DNA from: Rhodococcus opacus
Lineage (GTDB): Bacteria; Actinomycetota; Actinomycetes; Mycobacteriales; Mycobacteriaceae
NCBI RefSeq assembly: GCF_012396235.1
Contig: NZ_JAAXPA010000009.1
Span: forward strand, 124,001-188,000
Length of the DNA stretch: 64,000 nucleotides
Direction: 5' to 3'
The translations under genes and the position numbers were made by a program. The notes below the pieces were generated by a model, which made no database searches, was not told where the DNA came from, and was given only the letters and a program-made list of their open reading frames with translations. Shown piece by piece: positions 12,864 to 60,643 of the stretch; position 1 is the first letter of the stretch; each line of letters starts with the position of its first letter.

Positions 12864-13469
12864 ATGACCACAGACGTCGACGGCGCCGAAGCGCCGATCA
12901 CGCGCCGGGAGCAGATGAAGGCGGATCGTCGCCGCCAACTGCTCGAGGCCGCCGCCCGCCTCATCGCCGAACGGGGCTTCCTCGGCGTCCGCCTCGAGGA
13001 CCTCGGTTCCGCAGCGGGAATCAGCGGCCCCGCCGTGTACCGGCACTTCCCCAACAAGGACGCCGTGCTCGTCGAACTGCTCGTCGGGATCAGCACGCGA
13101 CTGCTCGAGGGCGGGTCGCTCGTCGTCGCGGAGGCCGCCTCCCCGGAAGCGGCCCTGGAGGGTCTGATCGACTTCCACCTGGACTTCGCGCTCGGGGAAC
13201 CCGACCTCATTCGCATCCAGGACCGAGACCTGGAGAGCCTGCCCGCCGAGGCCCGCCGGGAGGTCCGGCAGACGCAGCGGCGCTACGTGGAGATCTGGGT
13301 GAAGGTGCTTCTGCAAGTGGACACGTCACTGGACGAGACGGACGCCCGCACCAAGGCGCACGCCACGTTCGGGCTCATCAACTCGACCCCGCACAGCGCC
13401 GATCCCACCACCCCCTCGCGCACCCGGAAAGTGCTGCGCGACATGACGCTTCTCTGCCTGCGCCCGTGA
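12864..13469 (+). CDS. TetR-family regulator of the leucine operon
   Basis: 201 aa from ATG 12864, preceded by AAGAGCAAGG; an ATG at 12831 is open but lacks such a site. N-terminal TetR helix-turn-helix: [20 protein letters not shown], then [28 protein letters not shown]. The C-terminal ligand domain is divergent. It is divergent from accD1, the arrangement of Rv2506 beside accD1 in mycobacteria, so repression of the leucine operon with an acyl-CoA inducer is likely. Its TGA stop lies inside the left arm of the long palindrome at 13461-13510. Confidence 0.88.
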
Positions 13470-13510
13470 GTACTTGTTAACCGCCCGCGGTTAACAAGTA
13501 CTCACGGGCG
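13461..13510. repeat. Long palindrome, copy 1 of a dispersed element
   Basis: Perfect inverted repeat: 24-base arms (13461-13484 and 13487-13510) around a 2-base centre. The core arm reads CCCGTGAGTACTTGTTAACC then GC. A second copy with the same core arm lies at 60596-60643. It contains the tetR stop codon and lies between convergent genes (tetR and glsB). It could form a strong hairpin in RNA from either strand. Confidence 0.9.
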
Positions 13511-13523
13511 GCGAAGCCGCAGA

Positions 13524-13552
13524 AGGGCCCCGCCCTGACCGGACGGGGCCCT
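13524..13552. terminator. Bidirectional terminator-like hairpin
   Basis: AGGGCCCCG (13524-13532) pairs with CGGGGCCCT (13544-13552), with further pairing possible inside. It lies between the convergent tetR and glsB genes, 24 bp from the glsB stop. There is no long T-tract, which is common for actinobacterial terminators. Confidence 0.7.
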
Positions 13553-13576
13553 CCTCGTGACGGTGCGATGTGCCGT

Positions 13577-13846
13577 CTACACCCTGTTCTTGCTCGTCAT
13601 CGAGGTGTATCCGAGGGTCAGCACGGCCGCCACGGCGATGCTGATGACCCACCGGATCCAGTCGATGCCGCCGGTGTCTCCCTTGTCGAGGAGCCCCTCC
13701 CACACCCAGTACCCGATCAGCGCGCCGATGATGCCGAGCACGACGGTGATGACCCACCCCATCGCCTGCTTTCCCGGAATCACGAGACGCGCCAGAACGC
13801 CGATGACCGCACCGAAGATGATGGTGCCGATGATGTTGCCGACCAT
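13577..13846 (-). CDS. GlsB/YeaQ/YmgE-family small membrane protein
   Basis: 89 aa. Starts MVGNIIGTIIFGAVIGVLAR, with GKQAMGWVITVVLGIIGALIGY forming the second membrane segment and a third near the C-terminus. Glycine-rich transmembrane helices and the LVIPGKQ loop are the hallmark of this family, often called transglycosylase-associated or stress-response membrane proteins. The biochemical role is unknown. It is a single gene, convergent with tetR. Confidence 0.88.
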   Translation of the reverse strand: MVGNIIGTIIFGAVIGVLARLVIPGKQAMGWVITVVLGIIGALIGYWVWEGLLDKGDTGGIDWIRWVISIAVAAVLTLGYTSMTSKNRV

Positions 13847-13994
13847 GGCCCTTGTCCTCTCAACACGCAATTCATGGTGCGAGCGGAAGGTCACCGCTCA
13901 TCTCGAACATAACCACCTGGACACCCGTTCGACAGGGCTTCGGCAAATCGTTGCCAAAAGGTTCATGCGGCGTACCGCTGTGAACCCCCTCGGT

Positions 13995-14620
13995 TCAGCG
14001 AATGCCCTGCCGTCGCAGGGCTACGGACACCGCTGCGGCCCGGGTGTCGACACCGAGCTTCGCGTAGATGTGGGCGAGATGGGTCTTGACCGTCGCCTCG
14101 CTGATGAAGAGGGCTTTGCCGAGCTCCTTGTTGGTCATGCCCTTGGCCAGCAGAGTCAGCAGTTCGGCCTCCCGCGGTGTGAGAGCCTCCTCGGGGCGCT
14201 GCATCTGCTGCAGTAGTCGCGAGGCGACGGGCGGCGACAGCACACTCTGGCCGGCGGCCGCGCCGCGCACGGCCGCGAAGATCTCCTGGGGCGTCGAATC
14301 CTTCAGGAGGTATCCGATGGCACCGGCATCGATGGCGCGCACCACGTCGGCATCCGTGTCGTACGTCGTGAACACCAGCACCGGCAGGTTCCGATCGACC
14401 TGCCGGATGCGGCGAATGGCCTCCACCCCGTCGATACCGGTGCCGAGGGCGAGATCCATCGTCACGAGCTGCGGCCGAATGTGCTCACGGCGTCGACCGC
14501 CTCCTCCCCCGTGCCCGCCTCGGCGATCACCTCGATGTCCGGCTGCGAGTCGAGTAGCGCTCGCAGTCCGGCGCGCACGACCACGTGGTCGTCGACCAGC
14601 AGCACGGTCACGGTCGTCAT
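13995..14620 (-). pseudogene. senR: NarL-family response regulator (SenR-like), frameshifted
   Basis: The ATG at 14620 overlaps the kinase stop (ATGA) and begins a normal receiver domain (VTVLLVDDHVVVRAGLRALL). After EEAVDAVST this frame reads FGRSS and stops at TGA (near 14463). The missing part continues in another frame from the same point: RPQLVTMDLALGTGIDGVEA with the phosphoacceptor Asp, the conserved KDSTPQEIFAAVRGA, and a complete LuxR-type HTH (LTPREAELLTLLAKGMTNKE). Together the two halves make a normal regulator of about 208 aa, so one base is missing near 14478-14482. Either the gene is broken, or the sequence has an error, or a programmed shift occurs. Re-initiation downstream would give a protein without its N-terminal receiver half. 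Confidence 0.85.
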
Positions 14621-15819
14621 GCCGCGGTTCCTCGCGCGCACGGTATCTGAGCGGCCACCACGGTGCCCTCGCCCGGTGCGCTCTCGACGGTGAACGTGCC
14701 GCCCAGTTGCTCGACGCGACCGCGCATCGCGCGCAGGCCGTATCCGCCGCGCGCCGAAAGAGTTCCGGCGGGCGCGGGTTCGAAACCGGCGCCGTCGTCG
14801 AAGATGTCGAGCACGACGGCGTCCGGAAGATACGTCAACGTGACACCCACGGTCTCGGCGTGCGCGTGCCGGGCAATATTGGACACGGCGCTCTGGGTGA
14901 TCCGCAGCAGCGCGTGCGTCACCTCCGCCGGAATCGCGATCGGAGTACCCACGATCCGGAGCTCCGCCCTCGGGTGGTGGGTACGCGCGGCAGCGAGCAG
15001 TGCCGCGTCGAGCGGCTGGGATTCAAGGTTGGGCGCCGCGAGATGGTGCACGAGACTGCGCGTTTCCGCCAGGTTCTCGCGCAAAGTTCCGGTCGCCACG
15101 CGGACGTCCTCGCGTGCCCGCGCCTCCGTCCGCGGATCTGCCTGTGCCCAGATCTGCTCGGCCGCCTCGAGCCGAAGCAGGCTGCTGGTCAGTCCCTGTG
15201 TCACGGTGTCGTGGATCTCGCGGGCCAGTCGTTCGCGTTCGGCGAGCATTCCCGCCTCCCGCTCGGTCTCCGCGAGCCGGGACCGGGTCTCCGCCACCTG
15301 GCGGAGCAGTCGCACCCGTTCCCGGCCGTCCCGCTCGATCTGGCTGTACGCCATGACGATCAGCGCTCCGGTACACAGCGGTCCGACCAGCACCGCCCAC
15401 TCGCTGCGGCCGGAGAAGGTGAAGAACGCCAGCGACGTGAGCACGGCGAGAACCCCGACGACCGGGTACGCGATCCGGCTCGGGTACGCCCTCGTGCACA
15501 GGAAGAACATGGGAAACGCGCACCAGGCGAAACTCGGCGCGAGCCAGACGAGCACCGCCCACGTCGTCAGGACCGGCCACACCCACGGTTCCCATACGCC
15601 TTCCCGCCGTGCGACCACGGCGGTGACCGTGTACAACGCGGCGAGCGCGGCAATCAACGCGACCACTACGACGAACTGCCCGCTCACTCCGTGGTAGGTC
15701 AGATATCGCGCCGTCGACGTCGCGAGGAGGACGTAGAACGACACATGGATGGCGGTAGCGAGCGGGCCGCGCAGACCCGCGCCGTCCGACCTGTCCACTC
15801 CGTCCACAGGTGTCGTCAC
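14617..15819 (-). CDS. senS: NarL-family sensor histidine kinase, SenS-like
   Basis: 400 aa. Four to five hydrophobic segments in the first 160 residues, then a coiled region (ETRSRLAETEREAGMLAERE). A HisKA_3 dimerisation domain with the phosphorylated histidine is in RLAREIHDTVTQGLTSSLLR. The ATPase domain has an N-box (ITQSAVSNIARHA), FDDGAGFEP and YGLRAMRGRVEQLGG. It forms a 4-base overlapping pair with the response regulator and faces a secreted haem-binding protein gene. This is the organisation of Streptomyces SenS-SenR-HbpS, which senses haem and redox stress. The assignment is by context and architecture, so moderate for function. Confidence 0.85.
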   Translation of the reverse strand: MTTPVDGVDRSDGAGLRGPLATAIHVSFYVLLATSTARYLTYHGVSGQFVVVVALIAALAALYTVTAVVARREGVWEPWVWPVLTTWAVLVWLAPSFAWCAFPMFFLCTRAYPSRIAYPVVGVLAVLTSLAFFTFSGRSEWAVLVGPLCTGALIVMAYSQIERDGRERVRLLRQVAETRSRLAETEREAGMLAERERLAREIHDTVTQGLTSSLLRLEAAEQIWAQADPRTEARAREDVRVATGTLRENLAETRSLVHHLAAPNLESQPLDAALLAAARTHHPRAELRIVGTPIAIPAEVTHALLRITQSAVSNIARHAHAETVGVTLTYLPDAVVLDIFDDGAGFEPAPAGTLSARGGYGLRAMRGRVEQLGGTFTVESAPGEGTVVAAQIPCARGTAA

Positions 15820-15982
15820 GTCGATTGATCCTACGGATCTGCCGTGGGTCGCGGATCAACCGTTCGGATGATCTGCCGGGGCCGGACGGATGAGTTCGGG
15901 AGCGCCGTCGGCCCGATGCGGTCACCGGCACCGCCGGGCCAGGCTGGTCAGGTCAGCTCGTCACTTCCCGAAAGGCCTTCCG

Positions 15983-16567
15983 ATGCGCACCTTCCACCGC
16001 CTGCCCCGCATTCTGGCGATCACCGTCCCGCTCGCCGCGATCGTCGCCACCTCGGCGTGCGGCACGTCCGCGTCCGACGAGGCCAGTCCGGCGTCCACTC
16101 CGGTCGCGGCCGCCGCTGCGCCGGCCCCGATCGACGGTGTGGACGGCGTGGTGAGCCAGAACCGTCTCGGTATCGGCACTGCGCAGGCCGCCGCGCAGGC
16201 GGCGCTCGCGAAGTGCCAGGCCGACGGGCTCGGCTTCGTCACCGTGTCGGCGGTCGATCGCGCCGGCAACGTGCAGGCCATGTTGCGCGGGGACAACGCG
16301 GCTCAGCACACCGTGGAGGCGGCCCGCCAGAAGGCGTACACCGCTGCCGCGTTCGGCGCGAACACCAGTGATCTGAGCGAACGGGCCAAAGGCGACGGCG
16401 CGACGGTCGCCGACCTTCCCGGCACGTTGTTCCTCGCCGGCGGGGTGAGCGTGAAGTCGGCCGGCGGGTCGATCGCGGGTATCGGCGTCGGCGGCGCTCC
16501 CGACGGAATGCGGGATCAGGCGTGTGCGGCCGCCGGGCTCGACGCGATCGCCGGGGCGCTGGGGTGA
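15983..16567 (+). CDS. hbpS: Secreted HbpS/GlcG-family (DUF336) lipoprotein
   Basis: 194 aa. N-terminal signal sequence ending in a lipobox (IVATSAC, cysteine near residue 27), so it is probably anchored outside the membrane. The mature part is a GlcG/HbpS domain: AQAAAQAALAKCQADGLGFV, TVSAVDRAGNVQAMLRGDNA, ARQKAYTAAAFGANTSDLSE and a closing AGGVSVKSAGGSIAGIGVGG. Streptomyces HbpS binds haem and modulates the SenS kinase; the divergent position to a SenS-like kinase here supports a similar sensor-accessory role. Start chosen at the ATG that gives the signal peptide. Confidence 0.85.
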   Translation: MRTFHRLPRILAITVPLAAIVATSACGTSASDEASPASTPVAAAAAPAPIDGVDGVVSQNRLGIGTAQAAAQAALAKCQADGLGFVTVSAVDRAGNVQAMLRGDNAAQHTVEAARQKAYTAAAFGANTSDLSERAKGDGATVADLPGTLFLAGGVSVKSAGGSIAGIGVGGAPDGMRDQACAAAGLDAIAGALG

Positions 16568-16677
16568 AGAGCCGCCCCGTGTCGACGCCCGAACCGGAAC
16601 GCGCGCTGTAGGGACTGAACGAGATTCTCGCGCTCACCCCCGTCGCGACGTTGCTGCGGACCAGGTGACGAGGCGGG

Positions 16678-18315
16678 TCAGGTGCGCCCGATCAGGTCGA
16701 GGGACTGCTCGCGCATCTCGACCTTGCGCACCTTGCCCGTCACGGTCATCGGGAACTCGTCGACGACGTGCACGTACTTCGGGATCTTGTAGTGGGCGAG
16801 CTTGCCGGTGCAGAATTCGCGTACCTTCGCCGCGTCCAGGGGTTCGGCACCGTCCTTCATCCGCACCCACACCATCAGTTCCTCGCCGTACTTCGCGTCC
16901 GGCACCCCGATGACCTGGGCATCGAGGATGTCCGGATGCGTGTACAGGAACTCCTCGATCTCGCGGGGATAGACGTTCTCGCCGCCGCGGATGACCATGT
17001 CCTTGATCCGCCCGGTGATCGCGACGTAGCCGTCGGAATCCATCACACCGATGTCGCCGGTGTGCATCCACCGTCCGGCGTCGATTGCTTCCGCGGTCTT
17101 CTCCGGGTTGTTCCAGTACCCGAGCATCACCGAGTAGCCCCGGGTACAGAGTTCACCCGGTGTGCCCCGCGGAACGGTCAATCCTGTTGCCGGATCGACG
17201 ATCTTGACCTCGAGATGCGGACCGACGCGGCCGACCGTCGACACGCGCTGATCGATCGTGTCGTCCGACCGGGTCTGCAGCGACACCGGGGACGTCTCGG
17301 TCATGCCGTAACAGATGGAGACCTCGGCCATCCCCATCTGTTCGATGACCTGCTTCATCACCTCCACCGGGCAGGGTGATCCGGCCATGATTCCGGTCCG
17401 CAGGCTCGACAGGTCGAACGATGCGAAGTCCGGTTCGGCGAGTTCGGCGATGAACATCGTCGGCACCCCGTACAGCGACGTGCACTTCTCCGCTTCGACG
17501 GCCTGCAGCGTGGCTTTCGGGTCGAAGGAGGGCCCCGGAATGACCATGGTCGCGCCGTGACTCGTGCATGCCAGGTTGCCCATGACCATACCGAAGCAGT
17601 GGTAGAACGGCACCGGGATGCAGACGCGGTCGTTCTCCGTGTAGTGGCACAGCTCGCCGACGAAGTATCCGTTGTTCAGGATGTTGTGATGGCTGAGCGT
17701 CGCACCCTTGGGGAATCCGGTTGTCCCCGAGGTATATTGGATATTAATCGGGTCGTCCGAGGACAGGGCCGCCTGCGCGGCGGGCAGCAGGGACGGGTCG
17801 GCGGCGTGCGCAGCCATGCCGTCCGACGCCAGCTTGCTCCACTCGGCACTGCCGAGGAGCACCACCCTCTCGAGGTCGGGGCACTGCGGCCGGACCTCCT
17901 CGATCATGCCCGCGTAGTCGGAGGACTTGAACTCGGGCGCCGACACCAGCAGACGGATACCGGCCTGATCGAGCACGTACTTCAACTCGTGCGCCCGGTA
18001 AGCGGGGTTGATGTTGACGAGCACGGCGCCGATCTTGGCCGTCGCGAACTGGATCAGGGTCCACTCCGGGCAGTTCGGCGCCCAGATCCCCACCCGGTCG
18101 CCCTTCCCGATACCCCGCTTCAGCAACCCCACCGCCACGGCGTCGACGTCCCGCCTCAACTCCGCGTACGTCCACCGCCGCCCCGAGGGCCGGTCGACCA
18201 GGGCGTCACGATCGGCGTGGGCTGCCACCGTCCGGTCGAAGTTGTCTCCGATGGTGTCGCCGAGCATCGGGGCGTCCCACACGCCGTTGGTATAGCTGGG
18301 AAGCGGGGTTGTCAT
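16678..18315 (-). CDS. AMP-dependent fatty acyl-CoA synthetase (FadD type)
   Basis: 545 aa ANL-family ligase. P-loop [19 protein letters not shown] near residue 190, [15 protein letters not shown] for the A5 motif, [20 protein letters not shown] with [20 protein letters not shown] at the hinge, and the catalytic lysine near the C-terminus in [14 protein letters not shown]. The family activates medium- to long-chain acids for beta-oxidation; the exact substrate cannot be read from sequence. It is convergent with hbpS and downstream of no obvious partner gene. Confidence 0.9.
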
Positions 18316-18476
18316 CACTCTTCCTCTCCAGGAGCCCGTTCGGGCACCTACGGGACGGGCGGACCCGGAGGCCCTTCCGCGGTCGAACTTACTCTTGGTT
18401 GATGTGATCCAGGGCATACTGCACGGCGAGGGGCGCCGATATCTGTGCGAAGTCCGGACACCCCTCGCCGGCTCTG

Positions 18477-19817
18477 TCAGAGCGCGTCGTCTTTCGTTTC
18501 CACCAGGGCCTTCGTGCACAGCAGGCTGACCACGCCGAGGACGGCGAGCATGACGCCGATCGCGGCGCTGCCGTACGCGGACGCCAGGGGTGCGGCGATC
18601 AGCGGCGGCACGGCGCCGCCGAGCACGCCGGCGAGGTTGTAGCCGAGGCCGGCGCCGGTGTAGCGGTAGCGCGTCTGGAACATTTCCGGAAGCAGAGCCC
18701 CGCAGGGGCCGTAGGCGATTCCGAAGATGGCGAGCGTGACCATCACGCCTATCGTGAACGCCACAGGTGAACCGGTGTCGAGCAGCGGGAACAGCGCGAG
18801 CGCCCACACGACGGCCAGTCCGCAGGAGATCATGATGACCCGCCGACGCCCGATCCGGTCCGAGTACAGAGCGGAGACGACGATCGTGAGTCCGAAGACT
18901 ACGGCCGAGGCGATCCCGACCGTCAGCACGAACGGGCGGCTGAACCCGAGGGTCTTGGTGCCGTAGCTGGTGAGAAACGCTGTGCCCATGTAGAAGAACG
19001 CGAACAGCGTGGCGAGAGCGCCGGCCGAGAGGAGGATCTCCTTGGTCTGGTACCGCCAGGCGTCCATCAGCGGGAGGGTCCGCGGGGTCGCGTCGGCACG
19101 GTCGGCCTGCTGGGCCGCGCGGAACACCGGCGTCTCCTCGATCGCCAGCCGCATGTAGAGGCCGATGCCGACCAGGACGGCACTGAACAGGAAGGGAATC
19201 CGCCACCCGTATTCGAGGAAGACCTCGTTGGTGTCGCCGAGCAGGGTGCCGGTGACGAGGAACGTGGCGCTGGAGAGGATGAAGGCCACCGCGGGGCCGA
19301 GTTGCGGGAACATCGCGTAGAGGCCGCGCTTGCCCGGGGGTGCGTATTCCGCCGTCAGCAGCGTGGCGCCCGCCCACTCGCCGCCGACCGCGAATCCCTG
19401 ACCGAAACGCAGCAGCACCAGCAGGATCGGGGCCGCGACCCCGATCGTCTCGGCACCGGGCAGCAGGCCGATCAGGAACGTCGAGACACCCATCAGGATG
19501 AGCGTGGAGATCAGAGTCTTCTTACGTCCGATCCGGTCACCGTAGTGGCCGAACAGCATGGCACCCACGGGCCTGGCGACGAACGCGACGGCGAAGGTCG
19601 CGAAGGAGGCGACGGTGCCGGCGGTGGAGCCGAGCGCGGGAAAGAACACCGTGGGGAACACCAGGGCTGCGGCGGTGCCGTAGATGAAGAAGTCGTAGAA
19701 CTCGATGGTCGTGCCGATGCCGCTGGCGACGGCCACCTTGCGGACGCTGGTACCGCCCTGGCGCACCGGTGTGGGGGCGTGGGGGGCGCCCGCACCCGAG
19801 TTGGAGACTGTGGTCAC
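18477..19817 (-). CDS. MFS transporter, metabolite:H+ symporter (MHS) family
   Basis: 446 aa with about 12 hydrophobic helices. MHS signatures: [20 protein letters not shown] in helix 1, [20 protein letters not shown] in the 2-3 loop, [20 protein letters not shown], and the repeat motif [10 protein letters not shown] in the second half. MHS transporters import organic acids or betaine-like solutes with protons. Substrate unknown. The acyl-CoA synthetase gene downstream on the same strand (161-bp gap) could act on the imported acid, but this is only a suggestion. Confidence 0.92.
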
Positions 19818-19897
19818 TCGATTCCTCCGTGGTCCGTGGGGAACACCCTGGTGGGCGTATCCCGGATGAGAGGAAAAGTAGTGATCCGGCTCACTGT

Positions 19898-19927
19898 GTC
19901 ACCACCCCCGGATAGGGGGGTGGTGAC
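19898..19927. terminator. Terminator hairpin after the HTH gene
   Basis: GTCACCACCCCC (19898-19909) pairs perfectly with GGGGGTGGTGAC (19916-19927), a 12-bp stem with a 6-base loop. It starts 11 bp downstream of the stop of the minus-strand HTH gene, ending the ethanolamine operon. Confidence 0.75.
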
Positions 19928-19937
19928 GCGTGTCACG

Positions 19938-20483
19938 TCACTCGGCGGTGCCGGACGCGCCGAGCAGCTCCTTGCGGAGTTCGGTCCACACGGTGGCGTA
20001 CGAGTCGATCACGGGTTCCGAGATCCACTTCGACTCCCCCGCCGCGACTTTCGCGAGAGCGTCGGCGAACAGGTCCTGGTAGCGGGACAACCGGGGTACG
20101 AACGCCGACAGGTCGTCGAACACGACCGACGCCCGGCGGTCCAGGTCGGCCAGCTGATCGGCGTCGGCCGAATCGATCAGTCCGACGAACTCCTCGTGGA
20201 ACGGCACGAAGCTCTCGTACACCTCCGCGATGGAGTCCTCGTCGATGGACACCCGCTCGGCGTCGAGCTGATCCTCGAGCTCCGAGTGTCCGGCCTCGGT
20301 GAGCCCGATCCGGCCGTCCGACACTTCCTGCGCCTTGCCCTGGGTCAGCAGCGCGTCGTAGGCGGCCTGCGCGGACGCGGCGCTCACACCGAGATGCTCG
20401 GCCAGAACGGCCGCGCTGACCTGCTCTTTCAACCGGACCGCCTGCAGCAGGGCCAACTCGTCCACATTGCCAGCGAAGGCCAT
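19938..20483 (-). CDS. Winged-helix HTH protein downstream of eutBC
   Basis: 181 aa. Residues 10-75 look like a winged helix (LLQAVRLKEQVSAAVLAEHL, VSAASAQAAYDALLTQGKAQ, then a wing and LTEAGHSEL). The rest is an acidic helical region (FVPFHEEFVGLIDSADADQL, RLSRYQDLFADALAKVAAGE) that I do not recognise. It is 78 bp after eutC on the same strand and is probably co-transcribed with the ethanolamine genes, so a regulatory role there is plausible. Not assignable to a named family by eye. Confidence 0.72.
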   Translation of the reverse strand: MAFAGNVDELALLQAVRLKEQVSAAVLAEHLGVSAASAQAAYDALLTQGKAQEVSDGRIGLTEAGHSELEDQLDAERVSIDEDSIAEVYESFVPFHEEFVGLIDSADADQLADLDRRASVVFDDLSAFVPRLSRYQDLFADALAKVAAGESKWISEPVIDSYATVWTELRKELLGASGTAE

Positions 20484-52033: not shown

Positions 52034-52035
52034 CG

Positions 52036-53233: not shown

Positions 53234-53249
53234 AGTCTTCTGCGGTCGG

Positions 53250-54521
53250 TCAGTACGCGTTGTTGATCGCGTGATCGACCACGGGGAGCATCGACTCGAC
53301 CGTCACCTCGCGCGGGTTGCCCGGTGTGCACCAGTCGCCCTGGATGTGCTCGGAGATGGCCCGCACGGTCTTCTCGTCGCCCCGGATGGTGTCACCGCGA
53401 CCCTCGTACTTCTTGGTGTTCATCTGGTTCTTGTCGTACGAGTCGGTGCGCACCTGACCGAAGTTGTCCGGAATGCCGACGTCCTTCGCCAGGCGGATGG
53501 CCGCCTCGACCGCTGCGTCCGCTGCCTGCACCGTGGTGAGGTTGCGGGTGTCCACGCCCAGCGCTCCAGCCAGCTGAGCGTAGCGCTCGTACCGCGACGG
53601 CAGGTTGTACTCCCAGACGCGGGGCAGGGCGATGGCGTTGTTCAGGCCGTGGTGGCTGTCGAAGAACGCGCTGACCGCGTGCGAGATGGAGTGCACGATG
53701 CCGAGGCCGCCGGAGTTGAATGCCTGGCCGGCGATGTACTGCGCGTTCATCATTCCCTCGCGGGCCTTCAGGTTGCGCGGCTCGAACACGGCCTCCCGCA
53801 GGTTCTTCGCGACCAGTTCCACCGAGTACAGCGCGTTGCCGAGCGACGGCGCGAAGTCGAGACGCGACACGTACGGCTCACTGCCGTGCGCGAGAACGTC
53901 GAATCCGCAGTACGCCGTGAAGTGCTGGGGGCAGGTGTAGTACAGCAGCGGGTCGTCGATCGCGAGGGTCACGATGGTCGCCTCGTCGAATCCCACCCAC
54001 TTGTGCGGGTTGTTCATGTCCGACGTGTCGGTGATGACGTACGCCCACGATGTCTCCGAACCCGTACCGGCCGTGGTGGATACGGCGATGTGGGGTGGGT
54101 TCTCCTTGTTGGTGGACTTCGCGAATCCCTCGAACTCGTTGATGTTACGGCCGTCGTGCGCGACCACCACCCGGGCGCCCTTGGCGGCGTCGTGACTCGA
54201 GCCGCCGCCGACGGAGATGATCGAATCGCACTTCTCCTTCTGGTAGAGCGCGGCGGCTTCCATGACGTTGTAGTCCTTGGGATTGGACTCGACCTTGTCG
54301 TAGAGCACGACCTCGACGCCCTGGTACTCGATCTTGCCGACCAGTTCCTCGATGATGCCCGAGCCGCGCAGGCCCGTGGTCATGAGCAGGGTCCTCTTGA
54401 ATCCGAGGTTCTTCGCCTCGACGCCGATGATGTCGTGGGCGCCCACTCCCATCAGTGCCCGCGGGAACGGGTGGAATTCCTTGATGGGGAAGTCCCAGAT
54501 CTGGTTGAGCTCGATGGCCAT
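53250..54521 (-). CDS. mno: NDMA-dependent methanol dehydrogenase (nicotinoprotein)
   Basis: 423 aa, preceded by GAGGAG. Type III ADH family: SIISVGGGSSHDAAKGARVV at the cofactor site, STTAGTGSETSWAYVITDTS, AYCGFDVLAHGSEPYVS and HSISHAVSAFFDSHHGLNN with metal ligands. N-terminus AIELNQIWDFPIKEFHPFPR is characteristic of the actinobacterial Mno/Mdo decamers, which hold NADP(H) tightly and need an external acceptor. In actinobacteria this acceptor in vivo is mycofactocin, whose full biosynthetic locus lies 13 kb away in this window. Function: oxidises methanol and short alcohols. Confidence 0.95.
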   Translation of the reverse strand: MAIELNQIWDFPIKEFHPFPRALMGVGAHDIIGVEAKNLGFKRTLLMTTGLRGSGIIEELVGKIEYQGVEVVLYDKVESNPKDYNVMEAAALYQKEKCDSIISVGGGSSHDAAKGARVVVAHDGRNINEFEGFAKSTNKENPPHIAVSTTAGTGSETSWAYVITDTSDMNNPHKWVGFDEATIVTLAIDDPLLYYTCPQHFTAYCGFDVLAHGSEPYVSRLDFAPSLGNALYSVELVAKNLREAVFEPRNLKAREGMMNAQYIAGQAFNSGGLGIVHSISHAVSAFFDSHHGLNNAIALPRVWEYNLPSRYERYAQLAGALGVDTRNLTTVQAADAAVEAAIRLAKDVGIPDNFGQVRTDSYDKNQMNTKKYEGRGDTIRGDEKTVRAISEHIQGDWCTPGNPREVTVESMLPVVDHAINNAY

Positions 54522-54674
54522 GGCCGTCTCCTCGATTAGTCGATGTCGGATCTGAAGCGTTGCGGAAGGGGACGCACTCGATGTGATCGGCGTCTCACCT
54601 GGAATCCACTGTGACCTAGTTCGGGCCCCGGTTACAGGCCTGCGGGGCCGAACCGTCCGACCGCGGCGCACAAA

Positions 54675-54690
54675 CTGCCCGAACGGGCAG
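54675..54690. promoter_or_regulatory. Palindrome CTGCCCGAACGGGCAG upstream of methanol dehydrogenase
   Basis: 7-base arms with a 2-base centre, about 160 bp before the methanol dehydrogenase start. It shares the pattern CTRCCCGAWCGGGYAG with the palindrome upstream of the ErcA-like gene, making both candidates for the same regulator, most simply MadR. Confidence 0.55.
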
Positions 54691-54769
54691 GTGCGGCCGG
54701 GCCGAGCCGGAGGGGGCGGCACTCGATAGGATGTCCACTTCACGCGGAGTCCACCCGCTAGGCAAAAAC

Positions 54770-54783
54770 TAGAACCTGTTCTA
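54770..54783. promoter_or_regulatory. KstR operator of kshB
   Basis: TAGAACCTGTTCTA matches the KstR consensus TnnAACnnGTTnnA at every fixed position and is perfectly palindromic outside the CT centre. KstR is the repressor of cholesterol and steroid catabolism in mycobacteria and rhodococci. The site overlaps the likely promoter 60 bp before kshB. Confidence 0.93.
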
Positions 54784-54843
54784 TATTTGGAGCAGGCAAG
54801 CGAGCGTTCCGGCGCTGCGAAGTACGGAAGGACTGCACACACG

Positions 54844-55899
54844 ATGACGACTGTCGAGGTGCCGCACAGCTCACGATCGGTGGTGCTCACCGTGTCGGGC
54901 GTGGTCGAGGAAACACCCGACTCCCGGTCACTGGTCTTCGACGTCCCGGCAGACCTCGCCGACAAGTTCGCCTACAAGCCGGGCCAGTTCCTCACCCTGC
55001 GCATCCCCAGCGACCGCACGGGCTCGGTCGCCCGGTGCTACTCGCTGGCCAGCTCACCGTTCACCGACGACGCCCCCAAGGTGACCGTCAAGCGGACGGC
55101 CGAGGGCTACGGGTCCAACTGGCTCTGCGACAACATCGCCGTCGGCGACACCCTCGAGGTCCTCCCCCCGTCGGGAGTGTTCACCCCCAAGTCACTGGAC
55201 CACGACTTCCTGCTGTTCGCGGCAGGTAGTGGCGTCACGCCGGTGATCTCGATCCTCAAGTCCGCCCTCACCGAGGGGTCCGGCAAGGTCGTGCTCTTCT
55301 ACGCCAACCGCGACGAGAAGTCGGTCATCTTCGCGGAGGAACTCCGCACGCTCGCGAGCCGGTACCCGTCACGGCTCGTGTCCATCCACTGGCTCGAGAC
55401 GGTCCAGGGACTGCCGAGCGTCGATCAACTCGCCTCCGCCGTCGCGCCCTACCTGGGGCACGAAGCATTCATGTGCGGACCGGTGCCGTTCATGGACACC
55501 ATCCACAAGGCGCTCGCCGACGCCGGGATGCCCCGCAGCCAGGTGCACGCCGAAGTGTTCAACTCGCTGGCCGGCGACCCGTTCCGTGACGCCGACGTCG
55601 TGGAGGTCACCGACGACGAGGCCGCCGACGCCGCCACCGTGGAGGTGGAACTCGACGGCGAGATCCACAACCTGAGCTGGCCCCGCAAGCAGACCCTCGT
55701 CGACATCATGCTGGCCAAGGGAATCGACGTGCCCTACTCCTGCCAGGAGGGCGAGTGCGGGTCCTGCGCGTGCACCGTGCTCGAGGGCAAGGTCGAGATG
55801 GAGAACAGCGAAATCCTCGACCCCGAGGACATCGAGAGCGGCTACATCCTGGGCTGCCAGGCCCGGCCGGTCACCGACCACCTCAAGATCGAATTCTGA
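54844..55899 (+). CDS. kshB: 3-ketosteroid-9-alpha-monooxygenase, ferredoxin reductase component
   Basis: 351 aa. FAD domain with FAYKPGQFLTLRIPSDRTGS and RCYSLASSPFTDDAPKVTVK, NAD(P) domain with FLLFAAGSGVTPVISILKSA and AFMCGPVPFMDTIHKALADA, then a C-terminal plant-type [2Fe-2S] ferredoxin with CQEGECGSCACTVLEGKVEM (CX4CX2C) and the distal Cys in YILGCQARP. This order and the sequence match KshB (Rv3571 in M. tuberculosis). It passes electrons to KshA for 9-alpha-hydroxylation of steroids. A KstR box lies upstream. KshA is not in the window. Confidence 0.95.
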   Translation: MTTVEVPHSSRSVVLTVSGVVEETPDSRSLVFDVPADLADKFAYKPGQFLTLRIPSDRTGSVARCYSLASSPFTDDAPKVTVKRTAEGYGSNWLCDNIAVGDTLEVLPPSGVFTPKSLDHDFLLFAAGSGVTPVISILKSALTEGSGKVVLFYANRDEKSVIFAEELRTLASRYPSRLVSIHWLETVQGLPSVDQLASAVAPYLGHEAFMCGPVPFMDTIHKALADAGMPRSQVHAEVFNSLAGDPFRDADVVEVTDDEAADAATVEVELDGEIHNLSWPRKQTLVDIMLAKGIDVPYSCQEGECGSCACTVLEGKVEMENSEILDPEDIESGYILGCQARPVTDHLKIEF

Positions 55900-55905
55900 C
55901 TCCGC

Positions 55906-56502
55906 TCACCCGAGCCGGCCGAAGCCGACGACGGCGGAGTCGCTCGTCCAGTCCACGGTGTGGACGCGGATACGGCCGAACTCGTTGCCGCCGACCGTCG
56001 TAGCGGTGTCCCCGTCCACCGCGACGACGACATTGGTGTGCTGGCCGACCCAGCTGCTGTTGTCGTAGAGCACCACGTCCCCGACGGTCGGGCGGTATCC
56101 GCCCCCGACCTCCTCGAACCGCGACTGCGACTCGTAGTACTCCTGCAACGTGTAGACCCCGGGAATCCGCCAGTGCCCGGAATTCGGATTCGCCAGCGGC
56201 AGGCCGGCTTCCCGCATGATCCAGCTGACGAAGTCCGCGCACCAGGGCTCCTCGACCCCTTCGGAGTAGAACGTGCCCGGCCGCTGCCTGTCGTGTTCGG
56301 CCTCGAGCAGCCCGACGATCCGTGCCTGCTGCGGCGACAACGCGGATGTGTCGACGGCCGGGAATTCTGCGGTGTCCCACGGTAGATAGCGGTCCGGCGC
56401 GAGCCACAACACCCCTCCCGCCACGACGACCATCACAGCGACGACGGCGCCGAGGATCACCCCGGCACGTCGGCGGCGGCGAGTGGGCGCGGGAGCAGTC
56501 AT
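55906..56502 (-). CDS. Membrane-anchored CHAP-domain-like protein
   Basis: 198 aa. One N-terminal transmembrane segment (AGVILGAVVAVMVVVAGGVL after an Arg cluster). The outside part has EEPWCADFVSWIMREAGLPL with the catalytic-type Cys, and YRPTVGDVVLYDNSSWVGQH with a His, the Cys/His pattern of CHAP/NlpC amidases. Possibly cleaves or modifies peptidoglycan. Convergent with kshB, 6 bp apart. Confidence 0.82.
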   Translation of the reverse strand: MTAPAPTRRRRRAGVILGAVVAVMVVVAGGVLWLAPDRYLPWDTAEFPAVDTSALSPQQARIVGLLEAEHDRQRPGTFYSEGVEEPWCADFVSWIMREAGLPLANPNSGHWRIPGVYTLQEYYESQSRFEEVGGGYRPTVGDVVLYDNSSWVGQHTNVVVAVDGDTATTVGGNEFGRIRVHTVDWTSDSAVVGFGRLG

Positions 56503-56527
56503 GCCACCGAATGTAGCGGGTATCCGG

Positions 56528-57256
56528 TCACCGCATCGCGCGGTAGCCCGCACGCTCCTCTGCGGTCAGATGCTCGCACGCATACGTCAGGGCGGTGCGG
56601 CCCATCGCCGCGGCGTGCCGGTCGAGGAAACCGGTGAGCAGGTCGCGGTCGACCCGCTTGCCGACCTCGCGCAGCATCCAGCCCGTCGCCTTCTGCGTGA
56701 GGTCGCGGCGATCACCGAGAACACGCTCCGCGACCTCGAGCGTCGTGGAGGCGTCACCTCGGCGGATGAAACCGAACGTACTGAGCAGCGCGACACGGCG
56801 CCGCCAGAGGTCGTCGTCCGCGGCCAGATCGAACACCGGGGCGCGCGGCCGGTCGTACAGCCACGCGCCCAGGATCCGGTCGGCGGACGAGTCCACCAGA
56901 TCCCAGTTGTTCACCCGTCCCCGCATCACCACGTCGAGGTAGAAGGTCGCGATCTTCTCGCGCAGGGCGTCGTCGTCTGCCTTCGCCGCCCGGTCGAACT
57001 GCGTCGCGAGCACCAGCAGCCCCGCCAGTCGATGCTCGTGCACCGGACTGTCGAGGAGCACCGTCACCTCCGGAAGGTCCAGATCGGCGTGCGCACGAAC
57101 CACGCTGCGCGTCCCGGGAACCCGCACGCCGATGAAGACGTCGCCCTCCCCGTACTCCCCCGGACCGGTCTTGAAGAACCGTGCCAGATTGACGGCGTCG
57201 GTCTCGTCCGACAACTCGTCGAGTGCGCGCTTCACGTCGTCCGCGGTGGAAGTCAC
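56528..57256 (-). CDS. AlkD-family DNA alkylation repair-like protein
   Basis: 242 aa from GTG 57256. HEAT-like helical repeats: ARFFKTGPGEYGEGDVFIGV, HEHRLAGLLVLATQF, VNNWDLVDSSADRILGAWLY, KATGWMLREVGKRVDRDLL, ending TALTYACEHLTAEERAGYRA. The WDLVD and GWMLREVGK segments are typical of AlkD glycosylases for N3- and N7-alkylpurines. The start is uncertain; an ATG at 57313 would give 261 aa. Confidence 0.87.
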   Translation of the reverse strand: MTSTADDVKRALDELSDETDAVNLARFFKTGPGEYGEGDVFIGVRVPGTRSVVRAHADLDLPEVTVLLDSPVHEHRLAGLLVLATQFDRAAKADDDALREKIATFYLDVVMRGRVNNWDLVDSSADRILGAWLYDRPRAPVFDLAADDDLWRRRVALLSTFGFIRRGDASTTLEVAERVLGDRRDLTQKATGWMLREVGKRVDRDLLTGFLDRHAAAMGRTALTYACEHLTAEERAGYRAMR

Positions 57257-57364
57257 GAAGGCACTGTCCCACAGGGGGCCGACAGCCGCCGCGACAGCAC
57301 GGGCAAAAATCACGAAACATACTCTGACCTGCAGTTCGCGTTATCCGACTGCAACGAGCCAGGT

Positions 57365-57382
57365 ATTGATCGGTCGGTCAAT
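57365..57382. promoter_or_regulatory. Inverted repeat in the alkD-like/SPW divergent gap
   Basis: ATTGA and TCAAT flank TCGGTCGG, giving ATTGATCGGTCGGTCAAT. It is placed between divergent genes and could bind a dimeric (TetR-like) regulator. No regulator is assigned. Confidence 0.4.
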
Positions 57383-57429
57383 CTGGCGTGTACTCGAGGT
57401 GGACACAATCCATTTCGAGGAGGCTGGAC

Positions 57430-57795
57430 ATGAGATCGTGGAGTCGTATGCAAGATGTGGTGGCGATCGTGATCGGAGCCTTCGCGGCGCTCTCGCCGTT
57501 GTGGCTCGACACCAACAACGCCGCGATGTGGTCACTCATCGTGCTCGGTGTACTCGTGGCCCTCTCCGGTCTCGTCCACATGAGCCGCCCGGAGATGACC
57601 GTGGCCGAGTACGCGATGGCCGTCTTCGGAGTGCTGTTGTTCCTCTCCCCGTGGGTGATGAACTTCGACGCATTCACGGGCGCGTCGTGGACCGCATGGG
57701 TCGTCGGTGTCCTGGCAGTCGTCGTGGCTGTCACGGGGTTGCCGATGATGAGTTCCCGGATGCACGGACACGGAGGTCTGGCGACACATCACTGA
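57430..57795 (+). CDS. SPW-repeat membrane protein
   Basis: 121 aa with four hydrophobic helices in two similar halves. Each half contains the SPW-type motif: AALSPLWLDTNNAAMWSLIV and LFLSPWVMNFDAFTGASWTA. Start either ATG 57430 or 57448. Function unknown; family members are integral membrane proteins. Confidence 0.87.
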   Translation: MRSWSRMQDVVAIVIGAFAALSPLWLDTNNAAMWSLIVLGVLVALSGLVHMSRPEMTVAEYAMAVFGVLLFLSPWVMNFDAFTGASWTAWVVGVLAVVVAVTGLPMMSSRMHGHGGLATHH

Positions 57796-57828
57796 TCTGT
57801 GAACCACAGCACCGAGAACATCGATTGG

Positions 57829-57861
57829 GGCGGGGCGCAGGCTTACGGCCTGCGCCCCGCC
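57829..57861. terminator. Terminator hairpin after the SPW gene
   Basis: GGCGGGGCGCAGGC (57829-57842) pairs perfectly with GCCTGCGCCCCGCC (57848-57861), 14-bp stem, 5-base loop TTACG. It lies 33 bp after the SPW stop and 20 bp before the next start. Confidence 0.8.
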
Positions 57862-57881
57862 GTTCACGTCCGGAAAGGCCC

Positions 57882-58535
57882 ATGCCAGCACCTCATCTCG
57901 GTAAGCCCGGTGGCCTCCAACCGCGGAAAGGCCGGCGGCGGCGCAGCGCGAAGATCGACGGCGACGCCCGGGAACTGATTCTCGACGCCGCCGAATCCCT
58001 CATCGCCGTACACGGATTCGATGCCACGTCCACCGCATCGATCGCCTCTGCCGCGCACGTCCCGAAAGGACTGGTGTTCTACTACTTCCCCTCCAAAACC
58101 GACATCCTTCTGGCGCTGCTGTCCGAGAGACTGCCCACCGAACCCTTCGGCGACGTGGCCCCCCTGGTGACTCCGGGCGACCCCGCCGCCAGCCTCGTCA
58201 ACCTCGACAACGCGCTGAATCTGCGCGATCACCACTCGTCGGTGATGCGCGTGATCATCTGGCGCGAGGCCGAGACCCACCCGGACGTCCGTGCACACCT
58301 GCGGCGGTTCCGCGACTACCTCAGCGACATCACCGAGCGTCTCCTGCAGGCCAGTTCGCCCTACCCCGTGCAACCCGGGACGCTCCGGGCCTGCGCGACG
58401 GCGTGGGTGGCCGCGATGTTCTCCGTGGCGGGCAACGACCGCCTCCACGACCTCGACGACCTGCCGCGACGGCACGGCGAGGAACTCGACAACGTCGCAC
58501 GCGTCGTGGCGGCCGGGATGGTTCAGCTCGGCTGA
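57882..58535 (+). CDS. TetR-family transcriptional regulator
   Basis: 217 aa. Basic N-terminal extension (LQPRKGRRRRSAKIDGDARE), HTH with LILDAAESLIAVHGFDATS and IASAAHVPKGLVFYYFPSKT. The C-terminus is unassigned. The last 13 bp overlap the convergent racemase-like gene. Target unknown. Confidence 0.87.
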   Translation: MPAPHLGKPGGLQPRKGRRRRSAKIDGDARELILDAAESLIAVHGFDATSTASIASAAHVPKGLVFYYFPSKTDILLALLSERLPTEPFGDVAPLVTPGDPAASLVNLDNALNLRDHHSSVMRVIIWREAETHPDVRAHLRRFRDYLSDITERLLQASSPYPVQPGTLRACATAWVAAMFSVAGNDRLHDLDDLPRRHGEELDNVARVVAAGMVQLG

Positions 58536-59296
58536 GAACGCCCCGCCGACAACAGCTGACCGGCGGGGAACGCCTCGGCGCTCGCGGGCAGCCGCCCGGG
58601 CCTGCCGCTGAGGAAGACCTCGACGGTGCCCTCCCCCGCGCTCGGACGGTTCAACGCATCGATACGGCGGAGGGTCTGCGCCGCCACCGCCTCCGCGCTG
58701 TCGAACAACCGCACCCCGGCGGGAAGCTGCGCCGCGATCTCGTCGGCCATCAACGGATAGTGGGTGCAGCCCAGCACCACCCCGCCCACGTCGTCGGGTG
58801 TGCGCTCCACGGCGGAGGCGATGGCAGCGGTGGCCGCGTCCCGCTCGCCGCGGTCGATCGCCTCGGCGAGACCGTGGCACGCGACACCCACCACGGAACT
58901 GCCGTTCCCGAACTTCTCGATCAGATCGGCCTGATACCGGCTCGCCGTGGTCGCCGCGGTCGCCCAGACGGCCACCGACGGACACGCGGCGGCCGCCGGC
59001 TTGATCGCCGGAACCGTGCCGACGACCGGAACAGCCGGTCCGACGAACTCCCGGACGTGGTCGAGCGCCGTGACGCTCGCCGTGTTGCACGGCAGCACGA
59101 TCACCTCGGCTCCGCGGTCGAGGCAGCGCTGCGCGGTCGCGAGAACGCGGTCGATCACCCACTGTTCCGGCTTGGGACCCCACGGAGCCCCGTCCGGATC
59201 CAGAGCGAGGATCAGATCCAGTTCCGGTCGCAACTTGCGCAGCCACGCCGACGTCGGCAACATGCCGAGACCCGAGTCGATGAGCGCAACAATCAC
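58523..59296 (-). CDS. Aspartate/glutamate racemase-family protein (MurI-like)
   Basis: 257 aa. Catalytic cysteine motifs PCNTASVTALDHV near residue 70 and VVLGCTHYPLMADEIAAQLP near 180, plus N-terminal VALIDSGLGML in place of the usual FDSGVGG. The N-terminus differs from standard glutamate racemases, so this may be a second, specialised racemase rather than the housekeeping MurI. It has an odd short gap to the next gene and no cell-wall genes nearby. Confidence 0.82.
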   Translation of the reverse strand: MIVALIDSGLGMLPTSAWLRKLRPELDLILALDPDGAPWGPKPEQWVIDRVLATAQRCLDRGAEVIVLPCNTASVTALDHVREFVGPAVPVVGTVPAIKPAAAACPSVAVWATAATTASRYQADLIEKFGNGSSVVGVACHGLAEAIDRGERDAATAAIASAVERTPDDVGGVVLGCTHYPLMADEIAAQLPAGVRLFDSAEAVAAQTLRRIDALNRPSAGEGTVEVFLSGRPGRLPASAEAFPAGQLLSAGRSQPS

Positions 59297-59328
59297 CCGG
59301 AGAATCTATCGCGCCCCCGCCCGGCGGC

Positions 59329-60510
59329 CTACGCCGACGCGGCCTCGAGGACCTCCCCGATCGGAGTTCCCGCCGCGATCTTGCCCCGCATCTTCATAAC
59401 GCCCCCCGCCATGCCGGCGCCGACGACACCCGCCAGGATGCCGTCCCGCTCGTAGTAGGCGAGGAACTTGCGGCCGTCGTCCTTGATCACGTGCACCTCG
59501 TCGGTGGCCGCCACCGTGCCCAGTGCCTGGATCTTGATGTCGTACTGGTCGCTCCAGAAGTACGGCACCTGAGCGGCGGCGTTCTCGTCGCCGGTCCCGG
59601 TCAACGCCCCGGCGAGGATCTTGGCCTGCTCACCGGCATTGCTCCAGTGCTCGACGCGTTTGCGACCGCCCACCTTCAGCTGCCACGCGGCCACGTCGCC
59701 GACTGCCCATACGTGCGGGACCGCCGTGCGTCCCACGCCGTCGCACACCACACCGTTGTCCCGTTCGACGCCCGAGCCGTCGAGCCACGCGGTGACCGGC
59801 ACCGAGCCGACTCCGATCGCCACCACGTCGACGTCCACCTCGCTTCCGTCGCCGAGGACGGCTCCGGTGACGCGGTCCGTGCCCACCAGCGAGGTGAGCC
59901 CGACACCGGCACGCAGGTCGACTCCCTCGTCCGTGTGCAGCCGGGCGACGAGTCCGCCGATCTTCTCGCCGAGCACGGACGCGAGCGGTGTCGGCTGCGG
60001 CTCCACCACCACCACGTCGAGACCACCGGCCCGCATGCTCGCCGCCAGCTCGCAGCCGATGAAGCCCGCGCCGACGATCAGTGCCCGCTTGGCCTCGGCG
60101 AGGTCCGCGCGCAACGCCAGGCTCTCGTCGATGGACCGGAGAACGTGGACGCCCGCGAGCTCGGGCAGACCCGGTATCCGCCGCGGCACGAGGCCGGTGG
60201 CGATCACCAGTTCGTCGTAGCCGAGTTCGGTGCCGTCCGCGAGTCTCAGGATGCGGGAACCGGTGTCCACCGAGGCCGCCTCGACCCCCAGACGCAACTG
60301 GATGTTCTTCTCGTCGAAGAACTCGCGCGGCTTGAGTGTGGTGTCGCTCTTCTCCCCGCGCATCACTTCCTTCGACAGCGGCGGGCGGTCGTACGGAAGG
60401 TGCGGTTCACCGCCGAGAAGCACCAGGTCACCCTCGTATCCGGCCCGCCGGAGTTCCTCGGCTGTGCGCAGACCTGCCAGGCCCGCTCCGACGATCACAA
60501 TTCTCTGCAC
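59329..60510 (-). CDS. NAD(P)/FAD-dependent ferredoxin-type reductase
   Basis: 393 aa, GTG start at 60510 with GGGGAC upstream. FAD motif RIVIVGAGLAGLRTAEELRR, LPYDRPPLSKEVMRGEKSD, second Rossmann RALIVGAGFIGCELAASMRA, and PHVWAVGDVAAWQ near the C-terminus: the layout of ferredoxin/rubredoxin reductases for oxygenases. A partner ferredoxin or oxygenase is not adjacent, so its electron acceptor is unknown. Confidence 0.9.
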   Translation of the reverse strand: MQRIVIVGAGLAGLRTAEELRRAGYEGDLVLLGGEPHLPYDRPPLSKEVMRGEKSDTTLKPREFFDEKNIQLRLGVEAASVDTGSRILRLADGTELGYDELVIATGLVPRRIPGLPELAGVHVLRSIDESLALRADLAEAKRALIVGAGFIGCELAASMRAGGLDVVVVEPQPTPLASVLGEKIGGLVARLHTDEGVDLRAGVGLTSLVGTDRVTGAVLGDGSEVDVDVVAIGVGSVPVTAWLDGSGVERDNGVVCDGVGRTAVPHVWAVGDVAAWQLKVGGRKRVEHWSNAGEQAKILAGALTGTGDENAAAQVPYFWSDQYDIKIQALGTVAATDEVHVIKDDGRKFLAYYERDGILAGVVGAGMAGGVMKMRGKIAAGTPIGEVLEAASA

Positions 60511-60595
60511 TGTCCCCGTACCCGCCCAATCTGCCCCTGCGACGAACATGACCGCCATCACATCTCTGGCACAAGTCATATCAAACGCGCTCCGC

Positions 60596-60643
60596 ACCCG
60601 TGAGTACTTGTCAACCGCGGGCGGTTGACAAGTACTCACGGGT
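60596..60643. repeat. Long palindrome, copy 2 of a dispersed element
   Basis: Perfect inverted repeat, 23-base arms (60596-60618, 60621-60643) with centre GG. The arm contains CCCGTGAGTACTTGTCAACC then GC, differing from copy 1 by one base (C for T). The other arm has the matching change, so pairing is kept. It abuts the stop codon of the following minus-strand permease gene (60643-60645). Confidence 0.9.

What the first reader, a model, noticed from the sequence alone, without database searches (positions are those of the whole stretch)
13461..60643. Dispersed long palindrome with compensatory base change at gene 3' ends
Two almost identical palindromes occur 47 kb apart. Both have the arm CCCGTGAGTACTTGT(T/C)AACCGC, are perfectly self-complementary (24- and 23-base arms), and touch a stop codon (tetR at 13467-13469, permease at 60643-60645). 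The single difference in the arm is matched by the complementary change in the other arm, so base pairing, not just sequence, appears to be kept. The 2-base centre is CC in one copy and GG in the other, as if the loop flipped or the element were inverted. This looks like a family of REP-like elements that may act as bidirectional terminators or protein-binding sites.
Basis: seen in the sequence. Interest (0 to 1): 0.7.

Follow-up and report, generated by a model that had tools for sequence, protein, structure and literature searches.

The report
Palindromes docked on Rhodococcus stop codons
About eighty near-identical 46-base hairpins sit where genes end in this soil bacterium, often between two genes that face each other, and look like an overlooked family of gene-end signals that keeps its shape and core letters while its loop flips over between species.

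Summary
The window's genome (a Rhodococcus close to R. wratislaviensis) holds 80 copies, reversed control 0; nine related genomes hold 20-90. R. erythropolis-like genomes carry a sister family with another consensus. Copies sit at gene 3' ends: of 35 examined in this genome, 17 convergent, 16 tandem, 1 divergent, 1 unplaced; 47 of 50 gene ends lie within 25 nt of the core or inside it. At orthologous sites paired changes occur (22 of 42 groups) and the CC/GG centre flips (64 of 191 comparisons). But unpaired changes occur in 40 of 42 groups, and a 10-bp block per arm changes in 1.0% of base comparisons against 31% at the four most variable paired positions: sequence is kept more strictly than pairing. 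The REP end tags were not seen and REP-type transposase genes do not follow the element; there is no U-tract in the window's family. Best reading: an old, mostly vertically inherited REP-like element acting as a two-way gene-end signal, probably read by an unknown factor. In-frame copies inside NRPS genes suggest past mobility. No transcription data were available.

The parts
12864..13469 (+). TetR-family regulator gene; its TGA (13467-13469) lies inside the left arm of copy 1 (start codon as chosen by my gene caller)
   Evidence: Gene call; Pfam TetR_N 3.6e-15, TetR_C_24 1.1e-9
13461..13510 (.). Palindrome copy 1: 24-bp perfect arms, centre CC; 46-bp element 13463-13508, 40-bp core 13466-13505
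   Evidence: Sequence; model R1 match with E 2.3e-16; fold -37.3 kcal/mol
13508..13520 (+). Adjacent small hairpin GCGGC-GAA-GCCGC, sharing its first base with the palindrome
   Evidence: Sequence; a 4-bp-or-longer hairpin abuts the core in 82 of 158 copies against 26 of 158 in stretches 30 nt farther out
13524..13552 (+). Separate GC-rich hairpin AGGGCCCCG...CGGGGCCCT downstream of copy 1; a similar hairpin is present in G012 and G020, which lack the element at this site
   Evidence: Sequence and orthologues
13577..13846 (-). Convergent gene, weak Transgly_assoc similarity below the curated cut-off
   Evidence: Gene call; Pfam 19.9 bits against a cut-off of 25.3
59329..60558 (-). FAD/NAD-dependent reductase gene downstream of copy 2 on the same strand; its called start is 39 bases from the 46-bp element (tandem arrangement)
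   Evidence: Gene call; Pfam Pyr_redox_2 4e-59
60596..60643 (.). Palindrome copy 2: 23-bp perfect arms, centre GG on the + strand; 46-bp element 60597-60642, 40-bp core 60600-60639
   Evidence: Sequence; model R1 match with E 3.4e-16; fold -39.6 kcal/mol
60643..63150 (-). MacB/FtsX permease gene whose TGA (60643-60645) abuts copy 2 (start codon as chosen by my gene caller)
   Evidence: Gene call; Pfam FtsX 7.7e-43, MacB_PCD 1.1e-22

Best explanation
A chromosomal, REP-like family of 46-bp hairpin elements that sits on or beside stop codons and works as a two-way gene-end signal. SHOWN: 80 copies in this genome; position at gene 3' ends, about half of them between convergent genes; copies kept at the same sites across species; a nearly invariant 10-bp block per arm (GTGAGTACTT); arms that change together more often than independence predicts; a centre that is CC in one species and GG in another; a sister family with another consensus in R. 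erythropolis-like genomes at the same kind of place. INFERRED: transcribed from either side, the element folds right behind the stop codon into a very stable hairpin that ends transcripts or protects their 3' ends (U-less terminator, or Rho-assisted with an exonuclease barrier), so that neighbours are insulated. INFERRED: the invariant block is read by a clade-specific trans-acting factor. INFERRED: strand-switch copying between the arms helps to keep them equal and could flip the loop.
For: 80 copies, control 0. Of 162 flank-distinct copies from ten genomes (orthologues counted in each): 77 convergent, 69 tandem, 9 divergent, 7 not classed; 210 of 223 gene 3' ends within 23 nt of the core or inside it, at fixed offsets. 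In this genome alone 17/16/1 of 35, 47 of 50 ends near. Background gaps of 60 bp or more: 32 convergent, 190 tandem, 139 divergent. Sister family, 56 copies: 38/17/1, 90 of 93 ends within 19 nt or inside. Sites shared with G012 at 14 of 19 readable sites. Block change 48 of 4660 against 576 of 1864 at the four most variable paired positions; mean flank identity 92%. Doubles 173 against 102 expected. Fold -37 to -40 kcal/mol. Sister family: 3 or more T in the 8 nt after the hairpin at 36 of 91 ends, background 17%.
Against: No transcript data. The window's family lacks a U-tract (34 of 211). No RNA-strand bias among mismatches in tandem copies (G.U 29, A.C 44, p 0.10). One-sided changes outnumber compensated ones (423 to 129). 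69 of 162 copies are tandem and 28 of 87 downstream gene starts lie within 25 nt, where a strong terminator would cut a possible operon; 9 copies are divergent. On 91 de-duplicated copies covariation is only modestly above shuffles (pairs changed on both sides 6, reached in 296 of 500 shuffles). No trans-acting factor was identified.
Confidence: 0.5

Rival explanations
1. A miniature mobile element (REP/MITE-like) whose copies survive mainly where they do least harm, on or just behind stop codons; no host function is needed.
For: Copies read in frame inside NRPS genes in two different protein contexts (L134 in R. wratislaviensis; plasmid pDK1 and, similarly, a USK10 plasmid). The core offers a stop in each forward frame, and 107 of 223 gene ends use one of them. 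One own gene ends five codons earlier than its G020 orthologue (site 5). Position at 3' ends and stop codons supplied by the element are printed for known REPs (PMC3733652, section 15).
Against: No Y1 transposase gene that follows the element: 12 of 28 genomes have one, element-rich G012, G024 and G019 none, G006 (no model match) four; other transposase classes were not screened. Most readable sites are shared with G012 (14 of 19). In G018 the 46 listed sites all lie on the 7.8-Mb contig between 0.93 and 6.95 Mb. Few plasmid matches. Mobility alone does not predict an almost invariant block beside freely changing paired positions at orthologous sites.
Confidence: 0.22
2. A DNA site: a dimeric protein binds the two GTGAGTACTT half-sites (40 bp end to end in 149 of 151 copies), for chromosome organisation or as a roadblock between genes; the hairpin is secondary.
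For: Sequence constraint exceeds pairing constraint; fixed 40-bp core in 149 of 151 copies; no RNA-strand bias; clade-specific consensus.
Against: A two-site protein does not need perfect pairing of the inner arms or of the flanking bases, yet compensatory changes occur there; no protein known. The roadblock version overlaps with the best explanation.
Confidence: 0.18
3. No present function: paired changes and loop flips come from templated mutation (strand switching at long palindromes) and from conversion between copies.
For: Centre flips in 64 of 191 comparisons, 5 of them with otherwise identical arms; internal deletions or remnants in G001, G012, G015, G019 and G020.
Against: Does not explain the near-invariant block beside variable paired positions, the 3'-end position, or the sister family at the same kind of place. 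For flipped pairs the arm comparison is a tie in 59 of 64, so inversion as such is not shown.
Confidence: 0.1

Closest known systems
GTAG- and CGTC-tagged REP elements (PMC3733652: abstract passages and section 15 seen)
   Same: Short dispersed palindromes, mostly between convergent or same-direction genes, often less than 20 bp from 3' ends; REP ends can supply stop codons.
   Different: No GTAG or CGTC end tag; perfect 22-24-bp arms in many copies; no correlated Y1 transposase gene; a family of an actinomycete genus, while the passages seen place GTAG REPs in other phyla.
Inverted uptake-sequence pairs used as terminators in Haemophilus influenzae and Actinobacillus (PMC5217627, passages seen)
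   Same: One recurring sequence in inverted pairs at gene 3' ends, thought to serve as terminators.
   Different: In the 33 own-genome arm loci that I looked at (30, 3) each arm has a partner arm, some of them imperfect; uptake sequences are abundant as single copies (about 1300 in H. influenzae). No poly-T tail in the window's family.
Structured transcript ends without U-tract in Streptomyces ('HS-U-lack', I-shaped terminators; PMC8269248, passages seen)
   Same: Stable stem-loop at a gene 3' end without a U-rich tail; bidirectional ends are reported there.
   Different: Those share structure only; here the stem sequence itself recurs 80 times.
Rickettsia palindromic elements (mentioned in PMC3733652 section 15)
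   Same: Palindromes read in frame inside proteins.
   Different: In-frame copies are rare here: 1 of 162 in the counted set plus the related plasmid NRPS copies.

Membership tests
GTAG/CGTC REP super-families | Terminal GTAG or CGTC tetranucleotide | tested here: not met
   In the 151 copies listed the core ends in GTGA/TCAC flanked by C- and G-rich bases; CGTC appears only near the centre of some copies.
GTAG REP with RAYT | A Y1 tyrosine transposase gene (PF01797) in element-bearing genomes | tested here: not met
   12 of 28 genomes match; element-rich G012, G024, G019, G010, G014, G017 have none, G006 without a model match has four. Whether any of the found genes is flanked by the element was not examined.
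REP-like in the broad sense | Short palindrome, many copies, mostly outside genes, dispersed | tested here: met
   80 copies in this genome; 1 of 162 copies inside a called gene.
Canonical intrinsic terminator | Stem-loop followed by a U-rich tract | tested here: not met
   3 or more T in 8 nt at 34 of 211 gene ends, window background 11%. Sister family 36 of 91, background 17%: partial there.
Functional bidirectional terminator | Transcript ends on both strands at the element | not testable with these tools
   No transcript data held; position between convergent genes is the only support.
Uptake-sequence dyads | Abundant single copies besides inverted pairs | tested here: not met
   All 33 own arm loci looked at have a partner arm; not all of the 80 arm matches were read one by one.
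Rfam RNA family | Match at the gathering score | tested here: not met
   0 in the window; around copy 1 only 29 sub-threshold matches up to E 1, mostly microRNA-precursor models.

The most novel reading that the evidence does not exclude
A still unknown Rhodococcus factor recognises paired half-sites (GTGAGTACTT in one clade, TGTGCGCCTTT in the other), has co-evolved with them clade by clade, and defines gene ends in both directions; the palindromes are living structures whose loop is inverted in the cell from time to time.
Probability: 0.25. Interest if true: 0.75.

Novelty: new variant of a known kind. Interest (0 to 1): 0.52.

Why it matters
A genus of industrially used actinomycetes appears to carry a REP-like family without the tag or the transposase that mark known REPs, and with a clade-specific consensus. 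It gives candidate bidirectional gene-end parts for Rhodococcus engineering, 42 groups of orthologous copies on which templated mutation and loop flipping in nature can be measured, and a 10-bp half-site as a handle for finding the factor that reads it.

Tried and rejected
Chance: excluded. Only two copies: excluded. RAYT-driven REP: not supported. Phage origin: 0 in viral contigs and 0 in phages; plasmids: 4 records at E 0.01, 10 at E 10, all Rhodococcus. Canonical intrinsic terminator: no U-tract in the window's family. Fixed loop orientation relative to the gene: none (tandem copies CC 32, GG 28, CG 9). RNA-strand wobble bias: none. Inversion test on flipped pairs: uninformative, 59 of 64 ties on the 40-bp core. 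First readings of the orthologous gene ends used a wrong frame or strand for many rows; one search replaces them. Output was cut and is not used for counts. Covariation on 91 de-duplicated copies is only modestly above shuffles. Three genomes of another genus in the order have weak model matches (best E 3e-5); not followed up. The 162 and 56 copies include the same site in several species, so the small p-values are not for independent events; the own-genome count is the cleaner one. Nine paper searches listed no paper on this family; arm sequences gave no Rhodococcus paper. That library lacks most subscription papers, so 'unpublished' is not claimed.
Full report
CHECK. The two palindromes are as described: copy 1 at 13461-13510 with the TetR TGA inside its arm, copy 2 at 60596-60643 abutting the permease stop. 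A tolerant pattern search gives exactly these four arms in the window, 0.03 expected. Pfam supports the neighbours: TetR, MacB/FtsX permease, an FAD/NAD reductase; the gene convergent to TetR has only a sub-threshold match.

HOW MANY AND WHERE. The window lies in an 8.1-Mb genome of 109 contigs. Two 8-base ends 24 apart, GTGAGTAC and GTACTCAC, occur 80 times there and 0 times in the reversed control. Of 28 Rhodococcus genomes 12 have the pattern: 80 (own), 89, 72, 86, 79, 46, 90, 49, 81 and 20 copies in ten of them and 1 each in G022 and G020. A covariance model from 91 copies matches 24 of 28 genomes of the genus; G013, G006, G008 and G002 have no match. In 150 genomes of the order 4 match: the own one and three weakly, in one other genus.

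ANATOMY. The core is 40 bp in 149 of 151 listed copies. GTGAGTACTT and its mirror image are almost invariant; the bases beside and inside vary; the two centre bases are CC or GG in 128 of 147 copies and something else, mostly CG, in 19. A small hairpin of 4 or more bp abuts the core in 82 of 158 copies against 26 of 158 in stretches 30 nt farther out. The window copies fold at -37.3 and -39.6 kcal/mol.

A SISTER FAMILY. In seven genomes (G004, G007, G009, G010, G014, G016, G017; of the R. erythropolis type by recall of genome size and sequence, no call names them) the model finds palindromes of the same length and inner part but with other outer arms, [G/A]CTGTGCGCCTTT[G/A]TTAACCGC. The differences from the window's type are paired on both arms. 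G022 and G020 show further types.

GENE CONTEXT. With my own codon-usage gene caller (window genes agree with Pfam, otherwise not validated) I classed 162 flank-distinct copies of the window's type from ten genomes: 77 convergent, 69 tandem, 9 divergent, 4 skipped, 2 at a locus edge, 1 inside a gene (an earlier, narrower rule gave 68 convergent, 61 tandem, 10 divergent, 19 overlapping a gene, 4 edge). These include orthologues. In the own genome alone, 35 copies: 17 convergent, 16 tandem, 1 divergent, 1 edge; 47 of 50 gene ends within 25 nt of the core or inside it. Background gaps of 60 bp or more in the same material: 32 convergent, 190 tandem, 139 divergent. The 223 gene 3' ends cluster at fixed offsets: stop ending at core base 4 (68), 15 (20) or 29 (19), or 3 nt (30) or 7 nt (20) outside; 13 are farther than 25 nt. 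The core offers TGA, TAA and TAA in its three forward frames. Sister family, 56 copies (orthologues included; small training set): 38 convergent, 17 tandem, 1 divergent; 90 of 93 gene ends within 19 nt or inside, 5 of 93 inside. Against a pure terminator: 28 of 87 downstream gene starts lie within 25 nt.

HISTORY AT ORTHOLOGOUS SITES. For the window's two sites I read the orthologues in the genus. Permease end: element present in G000, G015, G018, G024, G023, G005 and G019; the pair at core base 11 is G-C, A-T, C-G or G.T in different species; the centre, read along the gene, is CC in four and GG in three. G001 has an internal deletion, G012 a remnant; G020, G011 and G006 have no intact element. 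Of eleven genomes with a 77-79% identical permease, ten carry another palindrome there, of the GTGCGCACTTT(T/C)GG type, and G042 none; the exact form GTGCGCACTTTTGG is low-copy (0-3 per strand) and found in 11 of 28 genomes. TetR end: element in G000, G018, G041, G023, G005, G001 and G024; remnants in G015 and G019; none in G012 and G020, whose gene ends at the same codon. For 30 own gene ends searched in G012, G020, G006 and G011, 20 sites gave a readable orthologue in at least one; in G012, 19 sites were readable: 14 with the element, 1 remnant, 4 without. Where the element is absent the stop codon is often at the same place (sites 17, 24, 25), so the element then sits on a pre-existing stop; sites 2, 5, 23, 26 and 29 have at least one orthologue whose stop is shifted.

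WHAT IS CONSERVED. In 233 orthologous comparisons in 42 groups (comparisons within a group are not independent, and some groups join neighbouring sites), 129 pair changes are Watson-Crick to Watson-Crick on both sides, 423 one-sided, 44 other doubles; doubles 173 against 102 if independent. 22 of 42 groups show compensated changes, 40 one-sided ones, 18 centre flips; 64 of 191 comparisons with CC or GG on both sides are flipped. The 10-bp block changes in 48 of 4660 base comparisons, the four most variable paired positions (picked) in 576 of 1864, and mean flank identity is 92%. The search for copies allowed two mismatches per 10-base end, so the low rate is not simply forced. On 91 de-duplicated copies, 93.2% of cells pair, but covariation is only modestly above shuffles and unpaired cells are common at four pairs. 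The RNA test (A.C 44, G.U 29 in tandem copies, p 0.10) gives no sign that the RNA helix is what is selected.

TAILS. In the window's family 34 of 211 gene ends have 3 or more T in the 8 nt after the hairpin, window background 11%; in the sister family 36 of 91, background 17%. So the sister family has some T enrichment and the window's family almost none.

MOBILITY. NRPS genes contain the palindrome in frame: L134 (R. wratislaviensis; Pfam AMP-binding, Condensation, PP-binding), before an LPDYMVP stretch, and the annotated NRPS gene of plasmid pDK1, just before YTSGTTG, with a like sequence in a USK10 plasmid. Gene ends cannot explain these; they suggest that the sequence has moved, though recombination between NRPS genes is not excluded. 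In G018 the 46 listed sites all lie on the 7.8-Mb contig between 0.93 and 6.95 Mb, and sites are shared between species, so movement now seems rare. No Y1 transposase gene follows the element. In G018 a DDE-type insertion sequence has landed in the centre of one copy.

COMPARISON. Position and habits equal those printed for REPs (PMC3733652, passages and section 15); tag and transposase features are not met. Inverted uptake sequences (PMC5217627, passages) and U-less structured ends of Streptomyces (PMC8269248, passages) are the nearest functional parallels. PMC12306157 was seen in passages only.

VERDICT. A real family, so far seen strongly only in Rhodococcus; a new variant of a known kind. 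The two-way gene-end role is the most likely function at about one half; a mobile-element origin without function and a DNA-site role remain open.

Noticed in passing
L403 (G018:C1:933400-935700); L032, L041: A DDE-type insertion sequence (Pfam DUF772, DDE_Tnp_1_6) sits in the centre of one copy of the palindrome and splits its two arms.
   Followed up: partly
L134:6652-6691 and L404:3001-3046 (plasmid pDK1); L405: The palindrome is read in frame inside non-ribosomal peptide synthetase genes at two different places of the protein.
   Followed up: partly
window 13508-13520; many copies: A small hairpin of changing sequence, such as GCGGC-TNC-GCCGC or GCGC-TGA-CGCGC, abuts the palindrome in 82 of 158 copies and differs between orthologous sites.
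   Followed up: partly
L223-L233 (erythropolis-type genomes), behind the permease gene: A different low-copy palindrome, GTGCGCACTTT(T/C)GG type, occupies the same orthologous site.
   Followed up: partly
L187 and L197 (G022): A further palindrome type, GTGAGCACTTGACGAGTC and its mirror image.
   Followed up: no
L152 (Nitrospirae MAG contig): A lone arm GTGAGTACTTGTCAACCG without a partner; chance or contamination.
   Followed up: no
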